From the IMG/VR virus record IMGVR_UViG_3300031565_000388, positions 1 to 23,311 of that record: DNA of 23,311 bases. One strand, given 5' to 3'. Positions 4,726 through 20,855 of this stretch are shown one piece after another (the first letter of the stretch is position 1; each line of letters opens with the position of its first letter). Source of the stretch: a virus. A program made the position numbers and the translations under genes. Below the pieces are notes generated by a model, which did no database searches, was not told the origin of the DNA, and saw only the letters and a list, made by a program, of their open reading frames with translations.

Positions 4726-5643
4726 TCAGTTACCCGTTGCCGGAGCCACAGCAGTTTTTGAAACTCCATCTTCCCCGCGGCTTGGATCTCCTGTATCAGA
4801 CCGCCCCGACCGAAGAGAGCTACTGACAACTGCATCTCCCACAAGTCTCTCAAACGGTAGGGAGGGGAAGTAGAACTCGGGACGAAAGGGCAACTTGATC
4901 AGGCTTTCCGTACCACATTCGCAAGTGAACGGAGCGTTCGCGAAGTCCAATCCGTGGTAGGTCTTCTTCTGGAAGGCATCGACGAAGATGCTGTCCTGAC
5001 CTGGTTTCTTGCCTAACCACATCGCGGCGCCGAGGTAGTCAACCACGTTACCGTCGATCTTCGAGATCGAGATCGATCGCTTGGCAGTCCATTTCTTGAT
5101 ACCGTCAGCGATCAACTTGTCCGCGGCCTGGTCATCCTCTCCTGTGGTGATTCGAAGAGTGACCTTCGACTTGCAGACAGGAAGCTCGAGCTCTGTCTCT
5201 TTCTCTATATCGGAATCGATCTCGAGAACAGGAATGTCGGCTAGCTTGTAGTAGTAGCTCTGATGGAACTTGCTACAGGCCGGACACACTACGTTGATCA
5301 CGTACGAGTCGTGCAACTGCGCGCGCGTCCAGACATGCAGGAACGTTCGGTCCCCCGATGTGAGCTTGATCGGGTTGAGGCCGGCCGGCTCGACGATCAG
5401 CATCTGCAGGAGCTGCGTCAGCTTCTTCTCGTAGCCTGGCCCGTTCATCTCAACGAAGAACTCGACCTCATTCGTTGACGGTGGCTTGATGCTGACGACA
5501 CCGTCGGGGATGAGATCTCCGTAGGTCTTGCCCATCGACGGTAGCGTTACAGAGACAGCGCGCATCACGTCTTCGAGCTTCGGCTCGACGGGCTTCTCAG
5601 GTACGACCTCAGGCTTTTTGTCAGTCGGATTGCGACGCTTCAT
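4726..5643 (-). CDS. T4 gp26-like baseplate/tail assembly protein with zinc-binding cysteine pairs
   Basis: This 305-residue protein has an LPSMGK motif at 34-39, then a helical region with the GDRTFLHVWTRAQL pattern, then CPAC at 120-123 and CECG at 241-244. The order of an LPSxGK entry, helical middle and CPxC pair matches T4-type baseplate hub proteins of the gp26 group (Pfam T4_baseplate family, from memory). The two Cys pairs could bind one zinc ion. It lies between the tube-like genes and the tape measure, where many phages keep tail assembly chaperones, so a chaperone-like role is plausible. The N-terminus (residues 1-22) is Lys/Pro/Glu-rich and the last 35 residues look disordered. 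The ATG overlaps the upstream TGA (ATGA) with GAGGAG upstream. Confidence 0.55.
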   Translation of the reverse strand: MKRRNPTDKKPEVVPEKPVEPKLEDVMRAVSVTLPSMGKTYGDLIPDGVVSIKPPSTNEVEFFVEMNGPGYEKKLTQLLQMLIVEPAGLNPIKLTSGDRTFLHVWTRAQLHDSYVINVVCPACSKFHQSYYYKLADIPVLEIDSDIEKETELELPVCKSKVTLRITTGEDDQAADKLIADGIKKWTAKRSISISKIDGNVVDYLGAAMWLGKKPGQDSIFVDAFQKKTYHGLDFANAPFTCECGTESLIKLPFRPEFYFPSLPFERLVGDAVVSSSLRSGRSDTGDPSRGEDGVSKTAVAPATGN

Positions 5644-6212
5644 AGCACTCTCCTCGATTCATCACATAGCATTTGCACAGGAACAGTTTTGATCCCGCTC
5701 GTCTCATAGCTGAACTCGTAATCACCAACCTTCTTCGGTACCAAGTTGATGAGCTTGTACTCAGCTTGCTTCGCTTCATCACGACTGTAAACACTGACCA
5801 TCGCGTCTCGCTTGTATCCGGCTAGGTCTCCACCCACTCCCTTCGGAGCTCGGTACCGATTCAAAGGATCGTTGCCACCTACTTCACCAGAGAGGGGTGA
5901 GACTTGTTCGAACCAGTTCCGCATGAATCGATCGACGTAGTCTCCCTCGATCTCGACGAAGTTGGCCGTCACGATCCCGCCACGCCGCTCCTGCTGTAGG
6001 TGATAGTACTCCTGACCACCAATGGAGTAGGCTTCGTGATCAACCTCTATCCCCGGCACAGAGACGCTCTGAACAAGCATTCTCATGTCCGGGTCCAACG
6101 TCCCGGACTCATCCGGAATGACGAACTGCCATAGGTATACGAGCTGTGCTTTCTCGAGCAGAGCTCGTATCACATGGATCGGCCAGGTGGTGCTTTGCGT
6201 TAGAAGGGCCAC
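5640..6212 (-). CDS. Tail-tube-fold protein, third tube-like paralogue
   Basis: This 190-residue protein shows the tube-fold pattern of its two upstream neighbours in its first half: AQLVYLWQFVIP, then LVQSVSVPGIEVD, then a Tyr-rich loop and GGIVTANFVEIEGDYVDRFMRNW. The second half differs; it lacks the FDVTFGY ending and instead has LVPKKVGDYEFSYETSGIKTVPV. It may be a tube initiator or terminal-ring protein like T4 gp54 rather than a bulk tube subunit. The start is not the first possible codon: GTG at 6221 lies inside the Shine-Dalgarno GGAGGTG, while GTG at 6212 has GGAGG 8 bases upstream, so I use 6212. It overlaps the upstream gene by 13 bases. Confidence 0.55.
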   Translation of the reverse strand: MALLTQSTTWPIHVIRALLEKAQLVYLWQFVIPDESGTLDPDMRMLVQSVSVPGIEVDHEAYSIGGQEYYHLQQERRGGIVTANFVEIEGDYVDRFMRNWFEQVSPLSGEVGGNDPLNRYRAPKGVGGDLAGYKRDAMVSVYSRDEAKQAEYKLINLVPKKVGDYEFSYETSGIKTVPVQMLCDESRRVL

Positions 6213-6739
6213 GCTTCCCACCTCCAGTAGTCATAACCGAACGTCACATCGAACAACACGAGACCTGCATCTGAATAATCCAGCGGTGAGTCGTTCACAT
6301 CCAGGGGAAACGCATTATAAAAGTGAATCGCCTGTATGAACTGCGGCGTCTGCTCGAGCTTCGGCCCAAGAAGTCGAAGCCAGATGTTCGAACGCAACGA
6401 GGCCGCCGGCAAAGATCCGCCTTGAGTCTCGCTCTGGATCGAACCGAACCAGGACACGAACAACGGAAGGACCGGCCAGTTGTATCCTTCCTCGAAACGT
6501 ATCACATGCCGGCGCGGATATGCTTTTCGGCCAGGGACCTGAAACTGGAAGGGCCCATGACTGAGCACGTGCGGTTCGACACTGACGCCGGGGATCGCTG
6601 TCGATCGCGCGCGAAGTGTCAGACCATAGGCTAGAGCGAGAGCTACACTTGGGGGATCTAACACGACGATCTCCCAAGTGCATTTCTTCAGCGACTCTCC
6701 CAGCTGAGAACGAACCTGGGTGATTGGCGCCAAGCTCAT
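6200..6739 (-). CDS. Tail-tube-fold protein, second tube-like paralogue
   Basis: This 179-residue protein matches the adjacent tube protein along its length: ITQVRS near the start, WEIVV, a TLRARSTAIPGV segment, FEEG at the central strand, and a C-terminal FDVTFGYDYW. These are features of the gp19-like tube fold. Two tube proteins in a row suggest a minor subunit, such as an initiator ring, or alternative tube composition. The start is ATG with only a weak upstream element (AGGGCGG); it begins 19 bases after the tube gene stop. The central segment is longer than in the neighbour (about residues 105-135). Confidence 0.65.
   Translation of the reverse strand: MSLAPITQVRSQLGESLKKCTWEIVVLDPPSVALALAYGLTLRARSTAIPGVSVEPHVLSHGPFQFQVPGRKAYPRRHVIRFEEGYNWPVLPLFVSWFGSIQSETQGGSLPAASLRSNIWLRLLGPKLEQTPQFIQAIHFYNAFPLDVNDSPLDYSDAGLVLFDVTFGYDYWRWEAWPF
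6221..6225 (-). promoter_or_regulatory. Shine-Dalgarno GGAGG that fixes the GTG start at 6212
   Basis: On the minus strand GGAGG at 6225-6221 is followed after 8 bases by GTG at 6212. The GTG at 6221 abuts the same element and cannot use it, so the shorter protein is preferred. The site is inside the 3' end of the upstream tube-like gene. Confidence 0.7.
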
Positions 6740-6758
6740 CGCGACCGCCCTGTCTCAG

Positions 6759-7283
6759 CTACTCTTCGAGAATCCAGTAGCTGTAGCCGAACGTCACGTC
6801 GTATTGAACCAGCTCCGAACCCTCATAGGCGAGAGCTACCTCCGGCACGATCTCCGGGAAGAAGTCGAAGACCTTGTAGGATGCGATCACACTCTTGTTG
6901 TGATCGAGCTGGCGCAGGAACACGTTCACGAGGAACGCAGCTTGCCCTTCACCGACACCTGTCTGGTCGTTCAACCAGAGCTGATTCCATCCGTTGATGG
7001 CATTGGCAATGCTGGCGTCGAGGCCTTCCTCGAACTTGAACACCATGGTTCCGGGGAACTCGCGCCGGGTCGGATGCTTCTTCACTATCTGACCTTTGAA
7101 GTAGCTCTTCGCGGTCAGGTTGGTGATACCGGGGATCACCGCGTTCCTGGATCGAAGTGACAGGTTGCGTGCCGCGTCCCCTCCGGATCCAGGCACCTCG
7201 GGAACTACGAGTTCCCACAGATACACCTTGGCAGGAGCCGATAGAGCTCTCACCTGGGCGATCGTGCTTATTTCCTGTGCCAT
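6759..7283 (-). CDS. Tail tube protein, gp19-like
   Basis: This 174-residue protein has the size and pattern of T4 gp19-type tube subunits, which stack as hexamers inside the sheath. Visible marks are YLWELVVP near residue 21, SRNAVIPGITNL, the FPGTMVFKFEEGLD central strand and helix, and the C-terminal VQYDVTFGYSYW strand, equivalent to the xFxVTFxYxxW ending of the family. It follows the sheath gene by 26 bases, the classical sheath-tube order. The ATG has GGGAGG 6 bases upstream, so high expression is likely. It is the best candidate for the main tube subunit among the three tube-like genes. Confidence 0.85.
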   Translation of the reverse strand: MAQEISTIAQVRALSAPAKVYLWELVVPEVPGSGGDAARNLSLRSRNAVIPGITNLTAKSYFKGQIVKKHPTRREFPGTMVFKFEEGLDASIANAINGWNQLWLNDQTGVGEGQAAFLVNVFLRQLDHNKSVIASYKVFDFFPEIVPEVALAYEGSELVQYDVTFGYSYWILEE

Positions 7284-7309: not shown

Positions 7310-8866
7310 CTACGCGGCCGCAGCGACCTCGATGAGTGACACACCCACGCGAGTGATCGTGCCCGAAAACTGGATCCTGTTGATCGAAGCAAACGGTGAC
7401 ACGTAAATGTCGACGGCCAGTTCGCGCGCGGCGATTACCTGCGGCGTGTTGTTCGACTCGTCGCAGACTACGAGCACATCGTAGTACCCGTTGCCGATCA
7501 GATCCTGGTAGTAGCGATCGAGACCGCCTTTGATCTGCGTGCGCGTGAATGGTTCGTTGTTCTTGCCGATGAACCTCCGCAGGTACTTCTTGTTCGCTGT
7601 CTCGTCGACGTTGAGCCTCTCACGCGTGGCACGCCACGATCGATCCGAGTCGTACGGCTGGAGTGTGCGGCCGCCCCAGATCATCGTCCCGACACCGGGC
7701 TCGTTGATGATTGCATTGATCTGCGCCTCAGCGAGGAGCTCGACCGTCGGATCATCGAAGTCGGTCGTGAGGCCGAGGACCGGAAGCACACCTCGGTCGG
7801 GCCCGAAAACCGCGTCGTGCGGTTTGCCGCTCCTGTTCTTGCGCGCGATCGTCGCACAGACGTACCCGCTGGGCGGCACCTCGATCACCTTCGCGTTCGT
7901 CTCGTCCTGGACCGAGAGCCACGGCGCGTACTGCGTGCAGTAGCTCGGCGCGATCAAGCTGAGACCGTTTCGATTGGCGATGAGTGTGGCCGCGTTGGTC
8001 GTATTCTGACCGTCCGTTATGAACTCAGCGTCCTGTCGCTGCAGGCCGACCTCGGACAGTTTGTTCGCAACCGCTTCCTCGTACCAGCCGCCGGCCATGC
8101 CAACAGTGAAGCTGACCGCGCGAACGTTCTTGAAGTAGTCGTCCCAGGCCGCGGCAATGTCGGAAGCCTCAGGTGCGGTGCCGTCGTCTCCGCCGGCCAT
8201 CTGGAGCGCAGCCGTCTGCTCCTTCGGCATGACATCCTCGTCGATGTCCGTGTTGTCGCGCACGCGGATGTAGGCACTGTTGCCATTGATGACATCCTCG
8301 ATGTACAGCGACTTGCCGTAGCCGTCCTTCTTCAGCTGTATACGGCTGCAGTCGAACGACTCGACTTCCGAGTAGTTGCCGTTCGCATCCGCTGCCCAGA
8401 CATTGACTGCGAACACTTCTAAGTCGACCGTGGAGTATTCGAGCTCGAGCTTGAGACCGTTGTTCCACGATCCCTGGTTGTCACCAGAGATGAGCAACAC
8501 CTCGTCCGGACTGAACGTATAATCCGTGAGCTCTTTGAGACCTGTGGCCAACGCTTCGTTCGGCAACGACCCGTCCACGTCGGTGAAGACGATGCCTCCG
8601 TACTCTGGCTCTTCGCCGGACTTGGCTGTTCGTAGACACCATATCGGACACTGTGCCAGCGCGCCGAGCGCGGTGTAGTGTCCCAGCATCCCGGGCTCTT
8701 CACTGCCATACGTGTTCCGGAACAACTTCGTGTGCGTCGCATAGAACCGCTGCTTGAATGGTCCACGCTTCGCCCAAAGGACCAACGCACCGACCGTGTC
8801 GCCACTCGCCACTACTACGGTCGATTGGTCTTTCTCTTCAAAATCCAGACCAGGAGCCTTCGCCAT
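7310..8866 (-). CDS. Contractile tail sheath protein
   Basis: This 518-residue protein reads as a phage tail sheath subunit. The N-terminus has the STVVVASGDTVGALVLWAKRGP pattern, followed by LFRNTYGS. The C-terminal third carries the most conserved part: INEPGVGTMIWGGRTLQPYDSDRSWRATRERLN, then the helix around RRFIGKNNEPFTRTQIKGGLDRYYQDLI, and the closing strands ending in GTITRVGVSLIEV. Sheath subunits polymerise around the tube and contract at infection. The start is ATG with a strong GAGGAGG element, and the tube gene follows directly. The product ends in a run of Ala. Confidence 0.93.
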   Translation of the reverse strand: MAKAPGLDFEEKDQSTVVVASGDTVGALVLWAKRGPFKQRFYATHTKLFRNTYGSEEPGMLGHYTALGALAQCPIWCLRTAKSGEEPEYGGIVFTDVDGSLPNEALATGLKELTDYTFSPDEVLLISGDNQGSWNNGLKLELEYSTVDLEVFAVNVWAADANGNYSEVESFDCSRIQLKKDGYGKSLYIEDVINGNSAYIRVRDNTDIDEDVMPKEQTAALQMAGGDDGTAPEASDIAAAWDDYFKNVRAVSFTVGMAGGWYEEAVANKLSEVGLQRQDAEFITDGQNTTNAATLIANRNGLSLIAPSYCTQYAPWLSVQDETNAKVIEVPPSGYVCATIARKNRSGKPHDAVFGPDRGVLPVLGLTTDFDDPTVELLAEAQINAIINEPGVGTMIWGGRTLQPYDSDRSWRATRERLNVDETANKKYLRRFIGKNNEPFTRTQIKGGLDRYYQDLIGNGYYDVLVVCDESNNTPQVIAARELAVDIYVSPFASINRIQFSGTITRVGVSLIEVAAAA

Positions 8867-8903: not shown

Positions 8904-8920
8904 GTAGTGGACACCACTAC
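8904..8920 (-). other. Perfect 7-bp palindromic hairpin ahead of the sheath gene
   Basis: GTAGTGG (8904-8910), a 3-base loop, and CCACTAC (8914-8920) form a perfect stem on either strand. It begins at the stop codon of the 55-residue gene and lies about 38 bases before the sheath ATG. No T-run follows in the direction of transcription, so it is not a typical terminator. It may be an mRNA processing or stability element, or chance. Confidence 0.4.
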
Positions 8921-9087
8921 TACACGTCCTGCATCTGCCCTCGAATTTCGACTGTGATCACCAACTTTTTCCCCTCCGGTACGGCAGCGGGGAGATTGAT
9001 TTGCACGGTACTGTCGCCGGCCGGAACTACGACCTCCTGTGTGTTCTTGACGACTTCCATGTACATTACTGTTACCTGCTCCGCCAT
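8920..9087 (-). CDS. Small 55-residue protein of unknown function
   Basis: An ATG at 9087 opens a 55-residue frame ending in TAG at 8920. It starts MAEQVTVMYMEVV, has a VVVPAGDSTVQINLP strand pair and ends in LVITVEIRGQMQDV. GGGAG lies 6 bases before the ATG. It fills most of the space between the tailspike stop (9099) and the sheath start (8866). Composition suggests a small beta-rich, soluble protein. No family is recognised; a small virion protein or sheath-associated factor would be a guess. The good ribosome site, the tight packing and coding-like codon pattern support it as real despite its length. Confidence 0.7.
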   Translation of the reverse strand: MAEQVTVMYMEVVKNTQEVVVPAGDSTVQINLPAAVPEGKKLVITVEIRGQMQDV

Positions 9088-9098
9088 GATTATCTCCC

Positions 9099-11558
9099 TT
9101 ACGCCGTCACGTTAGTACCCAGTGTCGCATTCGTCCCACTCTGGACGAAGTTCGCTCCTGTGTTTCCTCGAAGATGGTTTCCATCGAACAGGTTGTAATC
9201 ACAGTTCGAAACCTCTTCGATCCCGCTCCCGGTGTTTCCGTAACACCGATTGTTGTTGATCACACTCTCAGTCACGTCTTCCAGATGAATGCCATCAGCA
9301 GCAGAACCACTCACGACGTTTCCATCGATTACGCAGTTGTCAGCCGACGTTCCTGCGGTTCCAACCCATATGCAGGTATTGCCAGCTGTGTCTACCCTGT
9401 TGCTTCGCACCACGCTGTTGTCACCGCGCGCGAGTATACCGTAGGCTCCAGAGTTGTAGATCGAGTTCCCCTCGATCACAACATCTACAGCTAGACAATC
9501 GATCCCAGTTGATGCACTCGAGATGTTGTTGTTGGATACCACACACCTCGGACTGGAGGCGTCTACGTAAACCGCAACGTTTGCGACTCCGGTGAACGTG
9601 TTTCCCGTTACCGTGCAATCCGAAGCCGTGATGTAGATGGCATTGTCGTTCGTAGTCTTGATTATGTTGTTACTGATGATCGTGCGCGGCGCCAACGTGT
9701 AGATGCATTCACCATACTGGGTGAGGAAAGTGTTCCCATCGACTACACACCCAGTAGAAGAGCTTCCGATTTTGACACCATAATCTGATGTTCCAGCCCC
9801 AACGTCATCCAGCACGTTGCCCTGTATGACAGCGCCGTCAGCATCGTCCAGGTTCACGCCGTAACGAACTGACCCTGTGAGATAGTTGTTTATGAAGCGC
9901 AAGCCTTTGATCCTACCGGCTCCAACTGAATGCACATCGATGCCATAGCTGATACTGTAACTGGAATTGACCGTGCATCCCTTGACGACCAGATTCTTCA
10001 CACCGTTCGCATTGTTGGAGTAGAACAAGACTACGGCTTGGGTCGCACCTTCGCAGATGCAATTCTCGATGGTCATGTTCTCGATGTAGGCTGAGGAAGA
10101 CGCCCCAGAGTGACCGACTAGGTTGTTCCTACGACCTGTGTCTGGAACGTAGTGAATGTTCTTGATGGTGACTCGTTTGATGTCACCGTTCGTGATGCTG
10201 AATGCCGTGGCATCCGAGTCGGATTTATACGTCTCGATTCTGAACCCGTCGAACACGATGTCCTCACAGCTGGCAAGCAAGAACACGTTTACCGTCAGAT
10301 TCTGATCTATCACTGCTCCAGGAAGACCACGGATCGAGATCTTGGTTTTTCCGGACAGTGATATCTGATTACTCGGTGTATGGACTCCGGATGCTAGAAG
10401 GAATGAATCACCAGCACTGGCCGCTTCGATGATTGTTTTGATGTCATCGGAGGGACTGATGATCGTTTCCACTACCGCCCCGCCAGTTGACATCCCATCG
10501 ACAGCCTTGGCTAGATCATTCACATTCCTGACCGTGATCGGAAGGTTCCCGCTCCCGCTGTATTGAGACACGTCTATCTGTACCTGGCTACCTTGGATGC
10601 CGGGCCTCGTGTCGGATACGAGTTCACTCGCACCGATACTGTAGTCACCATTCGTCTGAGGTCTGCGATTTCCTCTCGAACCAACCAAGTTGTTGGCGAT
10701 CGCCGGTGCTACACCACCAGCGGCCAGTGAACCACCAGCTTTCACCTGTAGGAAATCAGACTCTGTCTCATCGAGTGAGAGGTAATCATCTGCCGGGGTG
10801 ATACCTGTGATGTTCCCAGTTCCACTTGCCCAGTTCCCATCCGCAGCTGTCGCGTCCTCAGATGCGTTGTTGACACCAGTAGATGCATTAATGCCACTAT
10901 AGTCGTTGTTCAGTGTTCCACTACACACACAGTTCCTGAGGACCTGAGCTCGACTGTTGCAGTTGATACCGTTCGAGAATGGACCCCGAACAGTGACGTT
11001 TTCCGCGATGATTGAACCTGCGTAACCACCTTTGTCGATCGACAGACCGGGTTGGCTTCCTGTGGATGCACTTCCGAATATGGTCAGGTTCTTGGCCATC
11101 AAGTCAGTTGAAGCAGACGCTGATGGACCAGCCTCGAACTCTACGAGCTCAGTAAAAGATCCATTCCGAGCGCCAGCATCTACCACAATGTCAGTGAACT
11201 CGGTGTCGGGACCATTCGATCTCAAACTGAGAAGCATGTAGTTCCCAGACACAGAAGCTTTGACTCGCAGATCCTTGACTATGATCTTTCCGGACCCAGA
11301 AGGAAGGAACGCAACGACACCGGATCCGTTTACATCTATCTCCCAACCTTTCGTCGGGTCTCCTCGGCTGGGGTTAGTCGAGTCAAATATGATGGTGTGA
11401 CCATTCACGTTCGGTTGGATGAGACAACCCGCCGGTTCCAAGATGCTGGATATCAATGTGAATCGTCGATCATCAGCGAGTAGTGAAGTACCTAGAGCCG
11501 TAGCTACTGCGGCGAGATTCGCGTAGTCTCCGCCCGAACCGACAGTCTGCTCTATCAT
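9099..11558 (-). CDS. Right-handed beta-helix tailspike / receptor-binding protein
   Basis: This 819-residue protein consists mostly of short strands with regular Asn, Gly and Val spacing, the mark of right-handed parallel beta-helix (PbH1-type) repeats. Two repeat blocks are visible, about residues 75-300 and 385-815, joined by a segment around 315-350 with a different character. The second block has many turns of the N-x-I/V and G-N-T/V-F type (for example VTGNTFTG, VIDGNVVSG, INNNRCYGNTGSGI). Such proteins are trimeric tailspikes that bind and often cleave surface polysaccharide; I cannot identify catalytic residues. A typical trimer head-binding domain is not obvious at the N-terminus. 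ATG overlaps the upstream glycosyltransferase TGA (ATGA), suggesting coupled translation. Confidence 0.8.
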   Translation of the reverse strand: MIEQTVGSGGDYANLAAVATALGTSLLADDRRFTLISSILEPAGCLIQPNVNGHTIIFDSTNPSRGDPTKGWEIDVNGSGVVAFLPSGSGKIIVKDLRVKASVSGNYMLLSLRSNGPDTEFTDIVVDAGARNGSFTELVEFEAGPSASASTDLMAKNLTIFGSASTGSQPGLSIDKGGYAGSIIAENVTVRGPFSNGINCNSRAQVLRNCVCSGTLNNDYSGINASTGVNNASEDATAADGNWASGTGNITGITPADDYLSLDETESDFLQVKAGGSLAAGGVAPAIANNLVGSRGNRRPQTNGDYSIGASELVSDTRPGIQGSQVQIDVSQYSGSGNLPITVRNVNDLAKAVDGMSTGGAVVETIISPSDDIKTIIEAASAGDSFLLASGVHTPSNQISLSGKTKISIRGLPGAVIDQNLTVNVFLLASCEDIVFDGFRIETYKSDSDATAFSITNGDIKRVTIKNIHYVPDTGRRNNLVGHSGASSSAYIENMTIENCICEGATQAVVLFYSNNANGVKNLVVKGCTVNSSYSISYGIDVHSVGAGRIKGLRFINNYLTGSVRYGVNLDDADGAVIQGNVLDDVGAGTSDYGVKIGSSSTGCVVDGNTFLTQYGECIYTLAPRTIISNNIIKTTNDNAIYITASDCTVTGNTFTGVANVAVYVDASSPRCVVSNNNISSASTGIDCLAVDVVIEGNSIYNSGAYGILARGDNSVVRSNRVDTAGNTCIWVGTAGTSADNCVIDGNVVSGSAADGIHLEDVTESVINNNRCYGNTGSGIEEVSNCDYNLFDGNHLRGNTGANFVQSGTNATLGTNVTA

Positions 11559-12181
11559 ATTGCCACCCGCTTCTCGTAGTGATCCTTGTACCGTTCGTCA
11601 TCCTTCATCCACAAGCTATACCGATGATGAATGGCGAGTCTCTTGTCCCCGAACTCCTGCCGATCTCGCTCATTGTCGCTAGCGTGAAGTAGATGATGCG
11701 GGATCTTGAGCACTGGTTTGAGCTCCGTTGCAACCTTGACGATCGGATCGATGTCTAACACCTTAAGCGATCGACTCTCCGAGAGTGTGAGTGTATCAAC
11801 AACAAACCCAACCCAGTCACCGTCAGCGATCGATCCAAACCCGTTGTTTTCCAGGTCATACCGATTTCGCATGCTCACGAACTCATCACCTTGAAGGAGA
11901 AGAGCGTCGATTGGCCGGAGACATTCGATGTCTGCATCCAGATAGATTCCGCCGAACTCGAGGACAACTTCCCATCGAAGCACTTCTGATTGGATCGTTG
12001 GATTCTCGATGTCGAGGACCCACCTGTTCTCGAGCTTGAGTTCGGATAGACTTTCACGATCCCAAAGCAGGATCCGCCATTCTGGATGTCTGGGCAACCA
12101 GCTATCAAAGCAACGCCGATAGTTCTCAGGCATTGCCTCGAGGCCTTGCATCCAGATGAAATGTAGAGTCTTCGGAATCAA
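11555..12181 (-). CDS. Glycosyltransferase, GT32-type with DXD motif
   Basis: The 208-residue product starts MIPKTLHFIWMQG, then has CFDSWLPRHPEWRILLWD, IQSEVLRWEVVLEFGGIYLDADIECLRP. This is the signature of DXD-containing glycosyltransferases of the GT32 / Gly_transf_sug group, with the metal- and sugar-nucleotide-binding DAD at 82-84 and the GGIYLD strand before it. The family transfers a sugar from a nucleotide donor. No signal peptide or membrane segment is seen, so it would act in the cytoplasm. It lies between a fibre gene and a tailspike gene, so those proteins are the obvious candidate acceptors; this is inference. The start is TTG, 1 base after the upstream TAG, with GAGGT 5 bases upstream, and the family N-terminus begins exactly there. 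Confidence 0.88.
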   Translation of the reverse strand: MIPKTLHFIWMQGLEAMPENYRRCFDSWLPRHPEWRILLWDRESLSELKLENRWVLDIENPTIQSEVLRWEVVLEFGGIYLDADIECLRPIDALLLQGDEFVSMRNRYDLENNGFGSIADGDWVGFVVDTLTLSESRSLKVLDIDPIVKVATELKPVLKIPHHLLHASDNERDRQEFGDKRLAIHHRYSLWMKDDERYKDHYEKRVAI

Positions 12182-12182
12182 T

Positions 12183-13685
12183 CTACACCTCGTACAGGAA
12201 CGTGATCCTGTCAGCTGCTGTCAGATGGAAGCCGGCCAAGTTGCCGTTCCAGTACAACACGTCGGCCGCGGCCAACGCTGACTTCGCGAGAGCTGTGAAA
12301 CCACCATCACGAGAGAAGTAGCACCACTCGCTCTTCACTGCGTCGCCGAGTGATACTTGGTCCCCATTCACGAATATCTTGATATCACCGACAGGAGCAG
12401 CAACTAGAGCTGTATCACACGCCTTGTTCTCATCGCTGTACGTTGCTCGAGCAGTCATCCAGTCATTGCTCGAGGTGAGGATCCCACCCGCGGACGCACC
12501 GACGATCGTGGATCCGACTCGCTTCAGACCTTGACCTTCCGCGATCGCGCCGATCGTGAGAAGAGTGGGGCCCGTAGTTGTCCGGATCCCGCGAACATCT
12601 GGTAACGCGACTGTTCCACCGAGCTGTCCAGCGAACTTGATGAAGTCACCATCCGAGATCTTCGCGTTGAATCCAGCGACAGTGGTATTATTGTGATCGG
12701 AACCAGATAGGTCATGAACCTGACCATGGTGATCGTTGACTCCGATAGTACTGAGCTGAGCGTGCGTGTAGTCATTGGCTTGGGCTGTTACTGCTCCCGT
12801 TCGACCGAATACACTCGAGATCGTTGCGGTGTTGTCGACCTTCTCCCAAATGGTTCCGTTGAAGATTGCCCAGTCACCGATCTCCCAGTCCGTAATACCA
12901 TCCAGGTTCGTGGCGCCGGCAACGCTCACGACGTAGTAGTAGCCTTTGGTCCCGACTCCGGACGCAAGCGCCGGCGTGTTTGTTGATGCATTCCACGTGC
13001 CCTGATAGCTGACACCACCGATGACGGCTGAAGGCATCTGCGCGATCGGTACCTTCGTGCTGCCGTCGAGAGATGCGTAACCATTGGCTTGCGCTTTCTC
13101 AGACGCTGCCTGCTTCGTCGAGTCGAGTTCGTCGATGGCATCCGACACGAAGCTGCCGGTCACACTGCTGTCGTTGTCGATCTGCGACGCGGCGTAGTCG
13201 CTCTCGGCCGAGGTCACTGCGCCGACTCGGTTGAAAACGCTCGAGACGCCCTCGCTGTTGTCGATCTTCTGCCAGGTCACTCCGTTGAAGATCGCCCAGT
13301 CGCCGACATTCCAGTCGGTCTCTCCGTCGAGGTCTGTGCTGCCGGCCACGTTAACGACGTAGTACTCACCCTTGGATCCAACACCACTCGTGAGCAGTGG
13401 TGAATTCGTCGATGCGTTCCAGACTCCCTGGTACGACAGACCTGCGCCCGTCGCCGGCACAGGTTCTGATTCCATGTGCTCGAACAAGGCAAGCCAGTCG
13501 GTCCCGTTGTAGCTCTTCAGTATCTCGTTGTTCTCGTTGGACGAATCCCACCAGATCCAACCTGGATCCGGATCGTTCGGTGCCGTGGGACCGCGATGGT
13601 GATCGGCCAGCGCGAGGAAGTTGGAGCGCATCTCCGCAGAGTATGGAGGTGTGTTGTATGCAGGCTTTTCCTTATTGAATGCCAT
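12183..13685 (-). CDS. Tail fibre protein with internal duplication
   Basis: This 500-residue protein starts with a short segment containing PNDPDPGWIWWDSSN (about residues 36-50), a pattern met at the start of phage fibre and collar proteins. It then has two copies of an 85-residue module (84-168 and 226-310), each with SYQGxWNASTN, GVGxKGxYYVV, VGDWAIFNG and SSVFxRxGAVT. Between them is a coiled-coil-like DAIDELDSTKQAASEKAQ stretch and a DGSTKVPIAQMPS linker. The last 190 residues form a different, strand-rich domain that may bind receptor. Such modules are common in prophage and phage fibres. GGAGG lies 7 bases before the ATG. The glycosyltransferase and tailspike genes follow. Confidence 0.78.
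   Translation of the reverse strand: MAFNKEKPAYNTPPYSAEMRSNFLALADHHRGPTAPNDPDPGWIWWDSSNENNEILKSYNGTDWLALFEHMESEPVPATGAGLSYQGVWNASTNSPLLTSGVGSKGEYYVVNVAGSTDLDGETDWNVGDWAIFNGVTWQKIDNSEGVSSVFNRVGAVTSAESDYAASQIDNDSSVTGSFVSDAIDELDSTKQAASEKAQANGYASLDGSTKVPIAQMPSAVIGGVSYQGTWNASTNTPALASGVGTKGYYYVVSVAGATNLDGITDWEIGDWAIFNGTIWEKVDNTATISSVFGRTGAVTAQANDYTHAQLSTIGVNDHHGQVHDLSGSDHNNTTVAGFNAKISDGDFIKFAGQLGGTVALPDVRGIRTTTGPTLLTIGAIAEGQGLKRVGSTIVGASAGGILTSSNDWMTARATYSDENKACDTALVAAPVGDIKIFVNGDQVSLGDAVKSEWCYFSRDGGFTALAKSALAAADVLYWNGNLAGFHLTAADRITFLYEV
12187..12191 (-). promoter_or_regulatory. Shine-Dalgarno GAGGT for the TTG start of the glycosyltransferase
   Basis: GAGGT on the minus strand is 5 bases from TTG at 12181 and lies in the last codons of the upstream fibre gene. 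It decides for the TTG start, since the next in-frame ATG would remove the conserved IPKTLHFIW strand. Confidence 0.6.
12756..13436 (-). repeat. Two diverged copies of a fibre module coding repeat
   Basis: Segments 13182-13436 and 12756-13010 code for the two 85-residue modules of the fibre protein, separated by about 170 bases. The protein copies are clearly alike, for example WNASTNSPLLTSGVGSKG against WNASTNTPALASGVGTKG, whereas the DNA copies differ at many third positions, so the duplication is not recent. Confidence 0.85.
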
Positions 13686-13688
13686 GTG

Positions 13689-14411
13689 CTACCTCCAAGC
13701 CTGGGCCGGATTGTCCCAGATAGCGTCCTGCGAATCCCAATTGAAGTTCTCGGTGATGTCGGCCGGCGACTTGAGGATCACAGCCGACTCGACCGTACCG
13801 TAGGCGCCGTAGTCCCATATGTTCCACGTGATCGTATCGATCGTCACGAACACATCTCCTGTCGCATCAATCACGTACCCGTCGATGGTCAGTACGAACG
13901 TCTCTCGATGCAAGCGGCCGATGTTGTAGATCTCCTGGATCCTTGAGTTGTCCTTCGGATCCTGGAACTGCATCGGCATCTGGAACGTGACGCCGTTCAC
14001 ATCGGTCAGCACGAGCTCCGGCTCGGGATCCATCCATTTCAGATAGGTCTCGACCGCGAACTCGTGATCGTCCTCGGCCGCGGACCAGTGCTCTATCTGG
14101 AAGGCCAGCTTGACTGGCCTCATCTTGTACTTCTCGGTGCGATCCGCGTTCGTGTAGGCTCCGTCGTATGCCAGCGGTACGTTGCGGCGCGCTCGGTTCG
14201 GTCTCTCGCCAATGCGCCAGAAGCTCATGAAGGGAGTGTTGAGCTCTCTCGGCCGCTCGAGCTTTGCGCTCTGTTCCATCCGATTGCGCAGTGCGATCTC
14301 GGCAGGGCACCACAGAACATCTCGGGGTCCGTTCAGAATGGGATCGATCGCCGTGTATCCGAAGATGTCGGCGACTTCCTGCTGCAGTTTCGTGGCGATC
14401 GCTCTCAGCAA
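13689..14411 (-). CDS. Tail terminator / sheath stabiliser candidate, gp15-like
   Basis: This 240-residue protein resembles the T4 gp15 layout: an N-terminal helix, a strand with PRELNTPFMSFWRIG, then the RPVKLAFQIEHWSAAEDDHEFAVETYLKWMDPEPEL segment, which follows the same course as the gp15 stretch (I/V-K-x-x-Y-x-L, E-D-D, helix, then Y-F-x-P), and a closing RLHRETFVLTIDGYVIDA strand-turn-strand. gp15 caps the tail and joins it to the neck. The match is from memory of gp15 and is remote. The start is TTG at 14411 with a perfect AGGAGG 5 bases upstream, 2 bases after the preceding stop. The last 25 residues (NWDSQDAIWDNPAQAWR) are Trp/Asn-rich. Confidence 0.5.
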   Translation of the reverse strand: MLRAIATKLQQEVADIFGYTAIDPILNGPRDVLWCPAEIALRNRMEQSAKLERPRELNTPFMSFWRIGERPNRARRNVPLAYDGAYTNADRTEKYKMRPVKLAFQIEHWSAAEDDHEFAVETYLKWMDPEPELVLTDVNGVTFQMPMQFQDPKDNSRIQEIYNIGRLHRETFVLTIDGYVIDATGDVFVTIDTITWNIWDYGAYGTVESAVILKSPADITENFNWDSQDAIWDNPAQAWR

Positions 14412-17827: not shown

Positions 17828-19336
17828 CTACGTCTCGAGGATGGTCCCCTCGACGTAATACTTCGAGTTGACGATCGCCTTGCCGTACGACGTCTGGGTT
17901 CCGACCCTGTACCGCAGGTCGTCCAGCGCCGTGACCGGCGTGGTGAAGCACGGCATGTACGGAGCGTACACGGCGCCGGCGTTCATCCAGCCTTCGCCCT
18001 TCCACCCCAGGAGGAACTTGTTCTCCGGGTAGAACGGGTTGGAGTACACGACCCAACGACCACGGAAGACGCCGCGCCTGTGAGGGCCGCTGGGCGGCTG
18101 CGTGTTCGGGCCGATCGCGCTCTCGAAGTCATCCAGACCGACCAGCGTCTGCATGAGCTTCTTACCGGCGACGATGAAGTTGCCGATGCCGCGCTTCGTC
18201 TCCTGGAAGATCGCTTCGGAACCTGCCTCCAGCGTGAAGACGAGTTCCTTGTAATACTCCCACTTGCCAACCTGCGTGTACGGCGACGTCAGGTCGAACG
18301 AGATGGAAGTTGCGCCGGACGTCGCTGCGGTGTCCAGCAGCATGTCCATGATCTCGGCATCGATCTCGTGCCGGATCTCGCTGACGAGCGCGGTCATGAG
18401 GTCTGACTGCGCCGAACGACCGTGGACCTTCTCGAGGTCATACGCGGCACCGATGAGCCAGCGCGCGCGCAGGAAGCGGTCGACCGCTTCGACGTCCAGT
18501 CTCTGGATGTCGATGTTCACGGCCGGCACACCCTCGACGCCCATGCGTTCCCAGTCGAAGCGGAACGTCACGAGCACGTCTTCCAGATTCTTGACCGGCG
18601 AGACGAAGCCGAAGTCGATGGCTCCGGTGTCGTAGTCGACCGTATTCGGCGCGGTCGTTCCGACGTCGCCCACGAGGTTCCCCGAGCCGTCGTCCGTCAC
18701 GACCATCTCGTTGTCCACGATGTCCGTTGCGGTGATCTGCACGGTCGTTGCGCGGACGGGAACGCGGCGGAGGGTTCCGGTCGAGTAGTCCGTCGTCGCA
18801 CCGTTGCCGGTCCAGCCGCTCGGCGTGTAGTAGTCCGTGTCAGACGAGTAGTCATACGTCGTGTTCGCCTGACCGGTCTTCGCGCCGATCATGATGTTGC
18901 CTGCGGTGACACCGGCCTTGGTGTCGCCGTAGACGAAGTCCAGGTAATAGATCTCACCCTTGCGGCGGTCCATGGCCTGGACCGACACGATCTCTTCCGA
19001 CATGAGGCTCGGCATGAGAGCGGCGATGATCTTGAAACCGTGACGCTGGAGCGTCTCGATCGCGTCCGTGTACGTGTCTTCCTTGATGAGGCCGGAACCG
19101 CGGACACGATTGGCGTGGTCCTGATACCACTCCTGGACGTTCTCCATCCCGATCGCCATGTTGGTGATCAGGTGGTCCGGCATATCGGCGCCCTTGTACT
19201 CCTTGTAGACGTCGACGGCCGGGCCGATGAACTTGCGGTGCTCTTCGAAGAGCTTGGCGCCGCGTTCGTCTCGCCTTGCGAGATCTTCGCTAACGCGCTC
19301 CTTCTTCTTCACCGCGCCCTTTATTTGCTGTGCCAT
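17828..19336 (-). CDS. Major capsid protein, gp23-like (HK97 fold)
   Basis: From the ATG at 19336 the protein is 502 residues, near the 521 of T4 gp23. The IIAALMPSLMSEEIVSVQAMDRRKGEIYYLDFVYGDTKAG segment corresponds to the gp23-like pattern of P-x-L-I/M-x-x-x-x-x-x-Q-P/A-M-x-x-x-x-G-x-I-Y. A long variable loop region (about 150-240) and the C-terminal KAIVNSKYYVEGTILET strand follow. It would form the shell hexamers. The N-terminal helix (about 1-45) is charged like a removable delta region and contains LFE before E at 29-31, a possible gp21-type cleavage site. The start is uncertain: an in-frame ATG at 19399 adds 21 residues inside the protease gene and also has an AGGA; I prefer 19336, which has AGGAG and no overlap. 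Confidence 0.85.
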   Translation of the reverse strand: MAQQIKGAVKKKERVSEDLARRDERGAKLFEEHRKFIGPAVDVYKEYKGADMPDHLITNMAIGMENVQEWYQDHANRVRGSGLIKEDTYTDAIETLQRHGFKIIAALMPSLMSEEIVSVQAMDRRKGEIYYLDFVYGDTKAGVTAGNIMIGAKTGQANTTYDYSSDTDYYTPSGWTGNGATTDYSTGTLRRVPVRATTVQITATDIVDNEMVVTDDGSGNLVGDVGTTAPNTVDYDTGAIDFGFVSPVKNLEDVLVTFRFDWERMGVEGVPAVNIDIQRLDVEAVDRFLRARWLIGAAYDLEKVHGRSAQSDLMTALVSEIRHEIDAEIMDMLLDTAATSGATSISFDLTSPYTQVGKWEYYKELVFTLEAGSEAIFQETKRGIGNFIVAGKKLMQTLVGLDDFESAIGPNTQPPSGPHRRGVFRGRWVVYSNPFYPENKFLLGWKGEGWMNAGAVYAPYMPCFTTPVTALDDLRYRVGTQTSYGKAIVNSKYYVEGTILET

Positions 19337-19361
19337 TTCTCTCTGTTCTCCTGCAGCGGAC

Positions 19362-20855
19362 TTATCGCGAAATCGTTCGCGAAGCGACTCTTCGGACATC
19401 CTCGGAGTCCTGATCGTACTCGTCCTCGCTGCTATCGGGGTCCTTTTCGTTTTCAGTCAGTCGTTTGGCAAGGGCTGCTCTGTCTTCTCGTCGAGAGTGC
19501 TCGTCGAAGATTGGCAAGCCTGGGTAACGAGATACCTGAACGTTTCGGACTGAGTCAATGACGGTATCAACGTCCGATTCGCTTTCGGCCGATTCGAGCA
19601 GTGGCTTGAATCGATCGGGGATCTCTACGCCTTCAGTCCTCAACTGCTTGTACTTCCGAAGCGTTTCCGCTTTGACGGCTTGCGGGACCTCGTTGATGTT
19701 CTCCTGCAGCTTCTTCTCAGCCGAGGTCGCGCGTGCCTCGGATTCTTGAAGCTTCTGCTTGAGATCGATCAGCTGACCGCGAAGTGACTCAACGACAGCG
19801 ACACCCTTCTTATATTTGGCCGTGAGCTCAGCGTGCTCCTTCTGCAGAGTGCGGTGAGTACCCGCGAACCCCACGTGAGCCTGCTGATTTTTGGCCGTCA
19901 GCTCTTTGAACTGGCGCGTGCTCCGTTTGACCTTGTCCAACGCGCGAAGTCGTTCGGACTCTGCTATGGTCGACTTCTTCCGGGCACCGCCAAGCTGTTG
20001 TTCCAACTGCGTGTGTTTCTTCTTCAGTGAGTCGAGCGTCGACTTCATCTCATCGAGCTGCTGTGTGAGCTGCGCGATCTTCTCGTCGCGCTCGATGAGT
20101 TCGGTGTGAGCACTCTCGAGCTGTGCGATCGCCTGCTCGAGGCCTCGAGACGGCTTCGAACTGACAACATCCTCGGAGCTTTCTTCGACCGGATCAACCT
20201 TCGATTCGGCTAGGATAGCTTCCACGTCCTCCGTGATGGCTTTCTGATCATCACCGAGCTTCTTGGACTCGACCGCCTCGGTCAGTGCGCGGCGCACGCG
20301 CGTGCGTGTATCTTCGGTGATGGCATCGGGCCGTGCTTCGACGAAGGACGGGTTGAGCACGAAGTCGACACCGTGCCACTCGTAGGTCTTGGGATCCACC
20401 TTCGTGCTGCCGCCACGCTCTTCGATGAGATCTCCGTCGCCGCGCGTCGAGAAGCCGAGCTGTACGCCGGCCTCGAGCATTGGCCAGATGATCCGGCCGA
20501 GGGGGTTGTCGAACACGGCGACCGTGCCGCGTATGTACTTCCCCTCCTTGCGCGCCTCGACCACCGTGTGACTGCCTTCGCGGATCACGGATTGCGTCCG
20601 CGTCTCCGGGTGATCAGGTTCGCCGAGCAGCAGCTTTCCATCGATCATCTCGATGATGCGAGGGCTTCCGAGAGTATTCTCCCACAGGAAGGATTCGTAC
20701 ATCCTGTGATTCTTGTTCTCCTCGTCACAGACCGAGAAGATCCCCTCTGCATAGCCAAGCACACCCTTCATCGAGTAACCACGATCTACGACCTCGGCCT
20801 CGGTGAGCGCGCGCGTCTTGCAGACCCGACCGGCAAGTGCCTCACATAGCTTCAT
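19362..20855 (-). CDS. Prohead protease fused to a coiled-coil scaffold-like domain
   Basis: Residues about 25-180 form a prohead protease domain of the T4 gp21 / HK97 protease group (S77/S78/U9 clan): GYAEGIFSV, ENTLG, LLLGEPDHPETR with the probable catalytic His82, GTVAVFDNPLGRIIWPML, GVQLGFSTRGDG with the probable Ser136, and WHGVDFVLNPSF. Residues about 238-395 are a long Lys/Glu/Gln-rich coiled coil, like a scaffold core protein, then an acidic end. T4 keeps protease (gp21) and scaffold (gp22) as separate genes. Between the domains are several I/L-x-E motifs (179-181, 191-193, 207-209, 215-217), the cleavage consensus of gp21. The protein probably builds the core inside the prohead and then digests it. 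ATG has AAGGAG 8 bases upstream; the capsid gene follows. Confidence 0.82.
   Translation of the reverse strand: MKLCEALAGRVCKTRALTEAEVVDRGYSMKGVLGYAEGIFSVCDEENKNHRMYESFLWENTLGSPRIIEMIDGKLLLGEPDHPETRTQSVIREGSHTVVEARKEGKYIRGTVAVFDNPLGRIIWPMLEAGVQLGFSTRGDGDLIEERGGSTKVDPKTYEWHGVDFVLNPSFVEARPDAITEDTRTRVRRALTEAVESKKLGDDQKAITEDVEAILAESKVDPVEESSEDVVSSKPSRGLEQAIAQLESAHTELIERDEKIAQLTQQLDEMKSTLDSLKKKHTQLEQQLGGARKKSTIAESERLRALDKVKRSTRQFKELTAKNQQAHVGFAGTHRTLQKEHAELTAKYKKGVAVVESLRGQLIDLKQKLQESEARATSAEKKLQENINEVPQAVKAETLRKYKQLRTEGVEIPDRFKPLLESAESESDVDTVIDSVRNVQVSRYPGLPIFDEHSRREDRAALAKRLTENEKDPDSSEDEYDQDSEDVRRVASRTISR

What the first reader, a model, noticed from the sequence alone, without database searches (positions are those of the whole stretch)
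11555..12181. Glycosyltransferase between two adhesin genes in the virion operon
A GT32-type enzyme with a DAD motif is encoded between a fibre and a beta-helix tailspike, with an ATGA overlap to the tailspike and a 1-base gap after the fibre. Such coupling suggests stoichiometric, late, cytoplasmic expression with the adhesins. Inference: it may glycosylate the fibre or spike, which are rich in Asn, Ser and Thr, to change host recognition or hide the virion; alternatively it modifies host surface sugars to stop superinfection.
Basis: partly seen in the sequence, partly recalled or inferred. Interest (0 to 1): 0.6.

Follow-up and report, generated by a model that had tools for sequence, protein, structure and literature searches.

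The report
Sugar-transferase gene between two phage adhesins
A virus of bacteria carries a probable sugar-attaching enzyme between the genes for two of its host-grabbing proteins, and the same three-gene set turns up in a nearly unrelated virus, so the enzyme probably works with those adhesins, perhaps by sugar-coating them, although no test has shown this.

Summary
A complete 208-aa glycosyltransferase (Pfam PF04488, DAD motif, predicted GT-A fold) lies on the minus strand at 11555-12181. It has a 1-base gap after a fibre gene and an ATGA overlap with a beta-helix spike gene, inside a T4-like (gp23) virion operon.

Tight packing alone says little: 20 of 23 junctions in this window are equally tight. 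Comparison says more. The closest viral relative found (L072, 47% identical, full length) sits in the same order, fibre - GT - spike - sheath, in a myophage with an unrelated capsid. Between the two contigs only fibre tip, GT, spike N-half and sheath core match, and the GT is by far the best conserved. L005, with the same gp23-type head, has neck and sheath genes joined with no cassette. The trio therefore behaves as a portable host-recognition cassette. Most other viral relatives of the enzyme lie in glycan gene clusters; a few unrelated phages carry it among tail genes.

Most likely it glycosylates the fibre and/or spike late in infection (about 0.5; acceptor, donor and activity untested). 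Host-envelope modification is the main rival. Fibre-plus-GT islands and virion-glycosylating GTs are already known, so this is a new variant of a known kind.

The parts
11555..12181 (-). GT-A glycosyltransferase gene, PF04488 (GT32-like), 208 aa, TTG start, DAD at residues 82-84
12186..12191 (-). Shine-Dalgarno-like GAGGTG for the GT, inside the last two codons of the fibre gene
   Evidence: sequence; by inspection
12183..13685 (-). tail fibre / minor tail protein, 500 aa
   Evidence: PHROG minor tail protein, E 4e-47
13251..13442 (-). first copy of a repeat (YQGxWNASTN...DWAIFNG) found in many phage tail proteins, fibre residues about 82-145
12831..13028 (-). second copy of the same repeat, fibre residues about 220-285
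12186..12458 (-). fibre C-terminal (tip) domain, residues 410-500, shared with both fibres of L072
9099..11558 (-). right-handed beta-helix tailspike, 819 aa; start overlaps the GT stop (ATGA)
   Evidence: Pfam Beta_helix E 2e-24 and NosD; PHROG tail spike
10518..11546 (-). spike N-terminal module, residues 5-347, shared with the L072 spike (about 31%)
9105..10466 (-). spike C-terminal module, residues 365-818, shared with the L004 spike (45%)
13689..14411 (-). neck/tail gene that flanks the cassette; in L005 its homologue is followed directly by the sheath gene
7310..8866 (-). tail sheath gene, other flank of the cassette
   Evidence: PHROG tail sheath, E 5e-52
8920..9087 (-). small 55-aa ORF between spike and sheath, inside the cassette interval
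   Evidence: translation

Best explanation
The gene encodes a soluble cytoplasmic GT-A glycosyltransferase that belongs to a portable host-recognition cassette (fibre tip - GT - beta-helix spike) placed just 5' of the tail sheath gene. It is translated late, coupled to the two adhesins, and most likely transfers a nucleotide-activated sugar onto the fibre and/or spike before or during tail assembly, so that virions carry glycosylated adhesins. Shown here: family, predicted fold, retention of nearly all family-conserved residues, operon position, and recurrence of the trio in a phage with an unrelated capsid. Inferred: late expression, catalytic activity, protein acceptor, and benefit (altered adsorption, protease resistance or masking).
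For: PF04488 match and DAD motif. Confident GT-A model (pLDDT 88.5, pTM 0.86). Closest solved folds are mostly enzymes that sugar-modify protein side chains (YeGT Z 17.9, PaToxG 17.1, SetA 16.9, large clostridial toxins about 14-17, Och1 15.0), though this reflects what has been crystallised. No membrane segment (highest 19-residue hydropathy 0.91). Nearest full-length relative (47%) has the same order fibre - GT - spike - sheath in a phage with a different head protein (phrog_1623, not gp23). Between the two contigs only fibre tip, GT, spike N-half and sheath core match; GT 181 bits over 200 aa, sheath 59 bits over about 290 aa. L005 lacks the cassette at this junction. GT and spike share the lowest GC of the window, 0.51 and 0.52. 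Unrelated phages carry the same enzyme family beside tail proteins: L052/L054/L059 (Thr/Ser-rich major tail protein - unknown - GT32 - GT2 - fibre with the same repeat as the window fibre) and L154 (major tail protein ... GT ... tail fibre). Phage GTs that glycosylate capsid and tail tube are established in mycobacteriophages (Freeman et al. 2023, as cited in PMC12363180 and PMC12619734).
Against: No activity, donor or acceptor is known. Most other viral relatives sit among GT2, FkbM methyltransferase, GT25, GT11 and GT10 genes, so gene-neighbour logic for the family as a whole favours glycan building. Only one other locus (L072) shows this exact trio. The fibre tip domain also occurs in huge phages with no such GT within 12 kb, so that domain does not need the enzyme. 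Residue 66 is Glu where 37 of 41 relatives have Asp, so donor use or activity may differ. Host-recognition islands collect many kinds of gene.
Confidence: 0.5

Rival explanations
1. The enzyme changes a host envelope glycan, the phage receptor, late in infection, so that rival phages cannot adsorb or progeny are not lost on receptor-bearing debris. It travels with the adhesins because they recognise that same glycan.
For: PF04488/Caps_synth relatives and most viral homologues lie in polysaccharide-type gene clusters. The pelagimyophage host-recognition cluster mixes tail fibres and GTs, and its authors favour O-chain modification against coinfection (PMC7029224). Co-inheritance with adhesins is predicted by this model too.
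Against: A solo soluble GT without flippase, carrier-lipid transferase, epimerase or other glycan genes recognised in the window. Placement in the virion operon implies late expression, when blocking superinfection matters least (inference). Closest solved folds are mostly protein-modifying.
Confidence: 0.27
2. Passenger or moron gene: it sits in a plastic insertion hotspot between neck and sheath genes, and its function is unrelated to the neighbouring adhesins.
For: The interval is absent in L005 and the neighbouring spike is mosaic. GT and spike are lower in GC than most of the operon. Host-recognition islands collect varied cargo (PMC7029224).
Against: Order and partners are kept in L072 despite an almost complete lack of similarity elsewhere, and the GT is the best-conserved gene of the set.
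Confidence: 0.13
3. It glycosylates modified bases of phage DNA, as the T4 DNA glucosyltransferases do.
For: Phage GTs that modify DNA are common (Pyle et al. 2024, cited in PMC12619734); the rest of this genome is unknown.
Against: No base-modification gene was recognised in the window. Classical T4 DNA glucosyltransferases have another fold, GT-B (own knowledge). Position between adhesins.
Confidence: 0.05
4. It is a degenerate or inactive glycosyltransferase kept for another role.
For: Glu66 replaces an Asp found in 37 of 41 relatives; small size, 208 aa.
Against: All seven invariant residues and the C-terminal His/Trp are kept; high-confidence complete fold.
Confidence: 0.05

Closest known systems
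Host recognition cluster (HRC) of pelagimyophages and cyanomyophages (PMC7029224)
   Same: A variable island inside the structural region of T4-like phages that combines tail fibres with glycosyltransferases.
   Different: The HRC averages about 34-45 kb with many genes and lies between VrlC and gp14; here there is a compact cassette of one GT between one fibre and one spike, 5' of the sheath gene, and it recurs in a phage with a non-T4 capsid. The paper proposes host O-chain modification.
Mycobacteriophage virion glycosylation (Che8, Corndog, Myrna; Freeman et al. 2023, read only through PMC12363180 and PMC12619734)
   Same: Phage-encoded GTs that sugar-modify virion proteins.
   Different: Acceptors there are capsid and tail tube; sequence relationship of those GTs to this one was not tested. 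Here the candidates are fibre and spike, and nothing is demonstrated.
GT32 / PF04488 glycosyltransferases (for example Och1) and the related fold group of SetA, YeGT, PaToxG and large clostridial toxin catalytic domains
   Same: GT-A fold, DXD motif, the H, W, R, GG, DxD pattern.
   Different: A minimal 208-aa catalytic domain without the extra domains of the toxins; identity to the solved structures only about 15-20%.
PBCV-1 GT involved in major capsid glycosylation (PDB 2p72/2p73)
   Same: Virus-encoded, small (about 200 aa) GT-A enzyme for a virion protein.
   Different: About 10% identity; virus of an alga; capsid, not adhesin.
Synechococcus phage ACG-2014f glycan cluster next to a tail fibre gene
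   Same: A homologue of this GT upstream of a tail fibre gene in a T4-like phage.
   Different: Part of a multi-gene cluster (GT11, GT6, GT25, epimerases).

Membership tests
PF04488 / GT32-like glycosyltransferases | Profile score above the curated cut-off | tested here: met
   45.7 bits against 23. PF05704 also passes, so assignment to CAZy GT32 itself is inferred, not tested.
PF04488 / GT32-like glycosyltransferases | DXD metal-binding motif and invariant H, W, R, GG | tested here: met
   All seven residues invariant in 41 relatives are present; one near-invariant Asp is Glu66
PF04488 / GT32-like glycosyltransferases | Complete GT-A fold | tested here: met
   Model pLDDT 88.5, pTM 0.86; Z 15-18 to GT-A enzymes over 160-185 residues
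PF04488 / GT32-like glycosyltransferases | Sugar transfer activity | not testable with these tools
   needs an enzyme assay
Virion-protein glycosylation system (mycobacteriophage type) | GT encoded by the phage | tested here: met
   The gene lies inside a virion operon
Virion-protein glycosylation system (mycobacteriophage type) | Sugar found on virion proteins | not testable with these tools
   needs mass spectrometry of virions; no isolate is known
Pelagimyophage-type host recognition cluster | Fibres and GT in a variable island of the structural region | tested here: met
   Cassette between neck gene and sheath gene, absent in L005, mosaic spike
Pelagimyophage-type host recognition cluster | Located between VrlC and gp14, tens of kb long | tested here: not met
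   About 4.8 kb between a neck gene and the sheath gene, so it works like an HRC but is not filed as one
GtrABC-type serotype conversion / superinfection exclusion | Flippase (GtrA), bactoprenol transferase (GtrB) and integral-membrane specific transferase | tested here: not met
   No membrane segment in this GT; no such genes recognised in the window; the rest of the genome is not held

The most novel reading that the evidence does not exclude
A self-contained, laterally moving adhesin-glycosylation cassette: a fibre tip, a spike module and the dedicated enzyme that glycosylates them, exchanged as one unit between myophages with unrelated heads, so that phage host recognition depends on a self-made glycan.
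Probability: 0.3. Interest if true: 0.72.

Novelty: new variant of a known kind. Interest (0 to 1): 0.48.

Why it matters
Glycosylation of receptor-binding proteins would be a layer of phage host range that genome-based prediction misses, and would explain why glycosyltransferases keep appearing among tail genes. The recurrence of one GT with the same two adhesin modules in two phages with unrelated capsids turns an old guess (virion or host as the target?) into a three-gene system small enough to express and weigh.

Tried and rejected
Close relatives of the GT in annotated phages: none; best hits are about 21-35% identical and mostly partial. Spike P0002 and the L072 spike have no match in annotated phages. 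Fibre repeats bring in many phages, but only L052/L054/L059 of 60 loci carry this GT family. A viral scan with the fibre tip found nothing; tblastn in phages found three huge phages without the GT within 12 kb. A genome scan with the two-member GT alignment found one bacterial locus at 32% over 107 residues. L003 is the same virus (100% identical proteins) and L004 a near relative, but both contigs end inside the spike, so they do not test presence of the GT. L008, a 'phage' record, carries a bacterial-looking polysaccharide locus and was not used as phage context. N/S/T enrichment and tight gene packing were rejected as evidence for glycosylation. The first blastn comparison returned nothing only because of wrong file paths. 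NCBIfam gave no family for the GT. The full text of Freeman et al. 2023 is not held.

Full report
OBSERVATION. The window is a 23,311-base virus record with no further genome held. All main genes run on the minus strand: prohead protease, gp23-type capsid, neck genes, fibre, GT, spike, sheath, tail tubes, baseplate genes. The reported gene is real: 208 aa, TTG start, PF04488 45.7 bits against a cut-off of 23, DAD at residues 82-84. The one-base gap and the ATGA overlap are as described. The GT's ribosome-binding sequence GAGGTG lies in the final two codons of the fibre gene. However, 20 of 23 gene junctions in the window are equally tight, so packing by itself does not single this gene out. 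Fibre and spike are the two proteins richest in Asn+Ser+Thr (24.0 and 27.6%, the others 9-21%), which is usual for fibres and beta-helices and proves nothing about glycans.

THE ENZYME. Across 41 viral and bacterial relatives H7, W40, R69, G77, G78, D82 and D84 are invariant and all are present; position 66 is Glu here but Asp in 37 of 41. AlphaFold gives a confident GT-A domain (pLDDT 88.5, pTM 0.86). By VIA-align the closest solved folds are YeGT (Z 17.9, rmsd 2.5, 170 residues), PaToxG (17.1), SetA (16.9), large clostridial toxin catalytic domains (about 14-17) and Och1 (15.0). Most of these attach sugars to protein side chains (own knowledge), but the sample is biased towards studied effectors, so this only makes a protein acceptor plausible. 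There is no membrane segment.

RELATIVES OF THE PHAGE. L003 is the same virus (100% identical proteins). L004 is a near relative (sheath 77%) whose spike shares residues 365-818 (45%) but has another N-terminal part; its contig starts inside the spike gene, so presence of a GT cannot be judged. L005 is more distant (capsid about 70%) yet keeps the gene order from protease to tail; there the homologue of gene 13689-14411 is followed after 21 bases by the sheath gene, so fibre, GT and spike are absent from that site. The interval of about 4.8 kb is therefore an optional cassette.

RELATIVES OF THE CASSETTE. A profile-guided scan found L072, a 25-kb contig whose GT is 45-47% identical over the full length. 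Its neighbours are two fibre-like genes ending in the same about 90-aa tip domain (38-42%), then the GT, then, overlapping by 19 bases, a spike with 31% identity over residues 5-395 of the window spike, then the sheath. That phage has a different head protein (phrog_1623) and head-tail adaptor. Comparing all 23 main window proteins with 20 kb of that contig, only fibre tip, GT, spike N-half and sheath core reach E 0.01; GT scores 181 bits over 200 aa, sheath 59 bits over about 290 aa. The trio is thus far better conserved than the rest of the two viruses. The simplest reading is transfer or long retention as a functional unit.

BASE RATE. Among 53 dereplicated GT loci, mostly viral, 90 co-directional neighbours most often match GT2, FkbM and other methyltransferases, GT25, GT11, GT10 and sulfotransferases, plus the T4-type RegA gene in five; tail or head families shown are singletons. 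So a position between two adhesins is not the default for this family. Independent tail-module cases exist: L052/L054/L059, where a major tail protein with long Thr/Ser-rich stretches is followed by an unknown protein, GT32, GT2 and a fibre with the same repeat as the window fibre; L154, major tail protein - GT32 - methyltransferases - glucosyltransferase - tail fibre; and L128, downstream of a tape-measure gene. ACG-2014f has a glycan cluster just before a tail fibre gene.

INTERPRETATION. I favour a late, cytoplasmic enzyme that glycosylates the fibre and/or spike (0.5). Supporting precedent: mycobacteriophage GTs glycosylate capsid and tail tube (Freeman et al. 2023, read only as cited in PMC12363180 and PMC12619734); two glycoproteins were detected in jumbo phage XacN1, which encodes two GTs (PMC5852040). 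The chief rival is host-glycan modification, the reading chosen by the authors who described fibre-plus-GT islands in pelagimyophages (PMC7029224). Both models predict co-inheritance with adhesins, so only biochemistry can separate them. The passenger reading is weakened but not removed by one recurrence.

MEMBERSHIP AND NOVELTY. It is a PF04488-type glycosyltransferase by every sequence and fold test available. It works like a small host-recognition island but does not meet the location and size of the published pelagimyophage HRC. It is not a Gtr serotype-conversion set as far as the window shows. New is the compact conserved trio shared by phages with unrelated capsids: a new variant of a known kind. 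Interest is moderate because the acceptor is unproven and only two trio loci are known.

Noticed in passing
window 8920-9087 (-): Unlisted 55-aa ORF (MAEQVTVMYMEVVKN...QMQDV) between spike and sheath genes; L072 has a 103-aa ORF at the equivalent place.
   Followed up: no
L005 7341-7592 versus window 17828-19399 (-): A stretch of about 86 aa inside the L005 tail sheath is 46% identical to residues 197-281 of the window major capsid protein: a domain shared between capsid and sheath of related phages.
   Followed up: no
window 9099-11558 (-): The spike looks mosaic: residues 5-347 match L072, residues 365-818 match L004. The beta-helix-type sequence starts almost at the first residue, so no separate virion-anchor domain is visible.
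   Followed up: partly
L052 4362-6056, L059 3969-5663: Major tail protein with long Thr/Ser-only, mucin-like stretches directly upstream of a phrog_4417 gene, a GT32 gene and a GT2 gene: a good candidate for a tail glycosylation locus.
   Followed up: partly
window 11984-11986 (-): GT residue 66 is Glu where 37 of 41 relatives have Asp; the L072 enzyme keeps Asp.
   Followed up: partly
window 5640-7283 (-): Three consecutive tail-tube-like genes, paralogous at about 22-30% identity; the order is kept in L004 and L005.
   Followed up: no
L169-L171 (huge phages LR745206, LR756500, LR756502): The fibre tip domain of the window fibre recurs at the ends of neighbouring fibre genes in huge-phage genomes of 460-640 kb, without a GT within 12 kb.
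   Followed up: partly
L008 (MT835535): A record deposited as a bacteriophage carries what looks like a bacterial polysaccharide biosynthesis locus.
   Followed up: no
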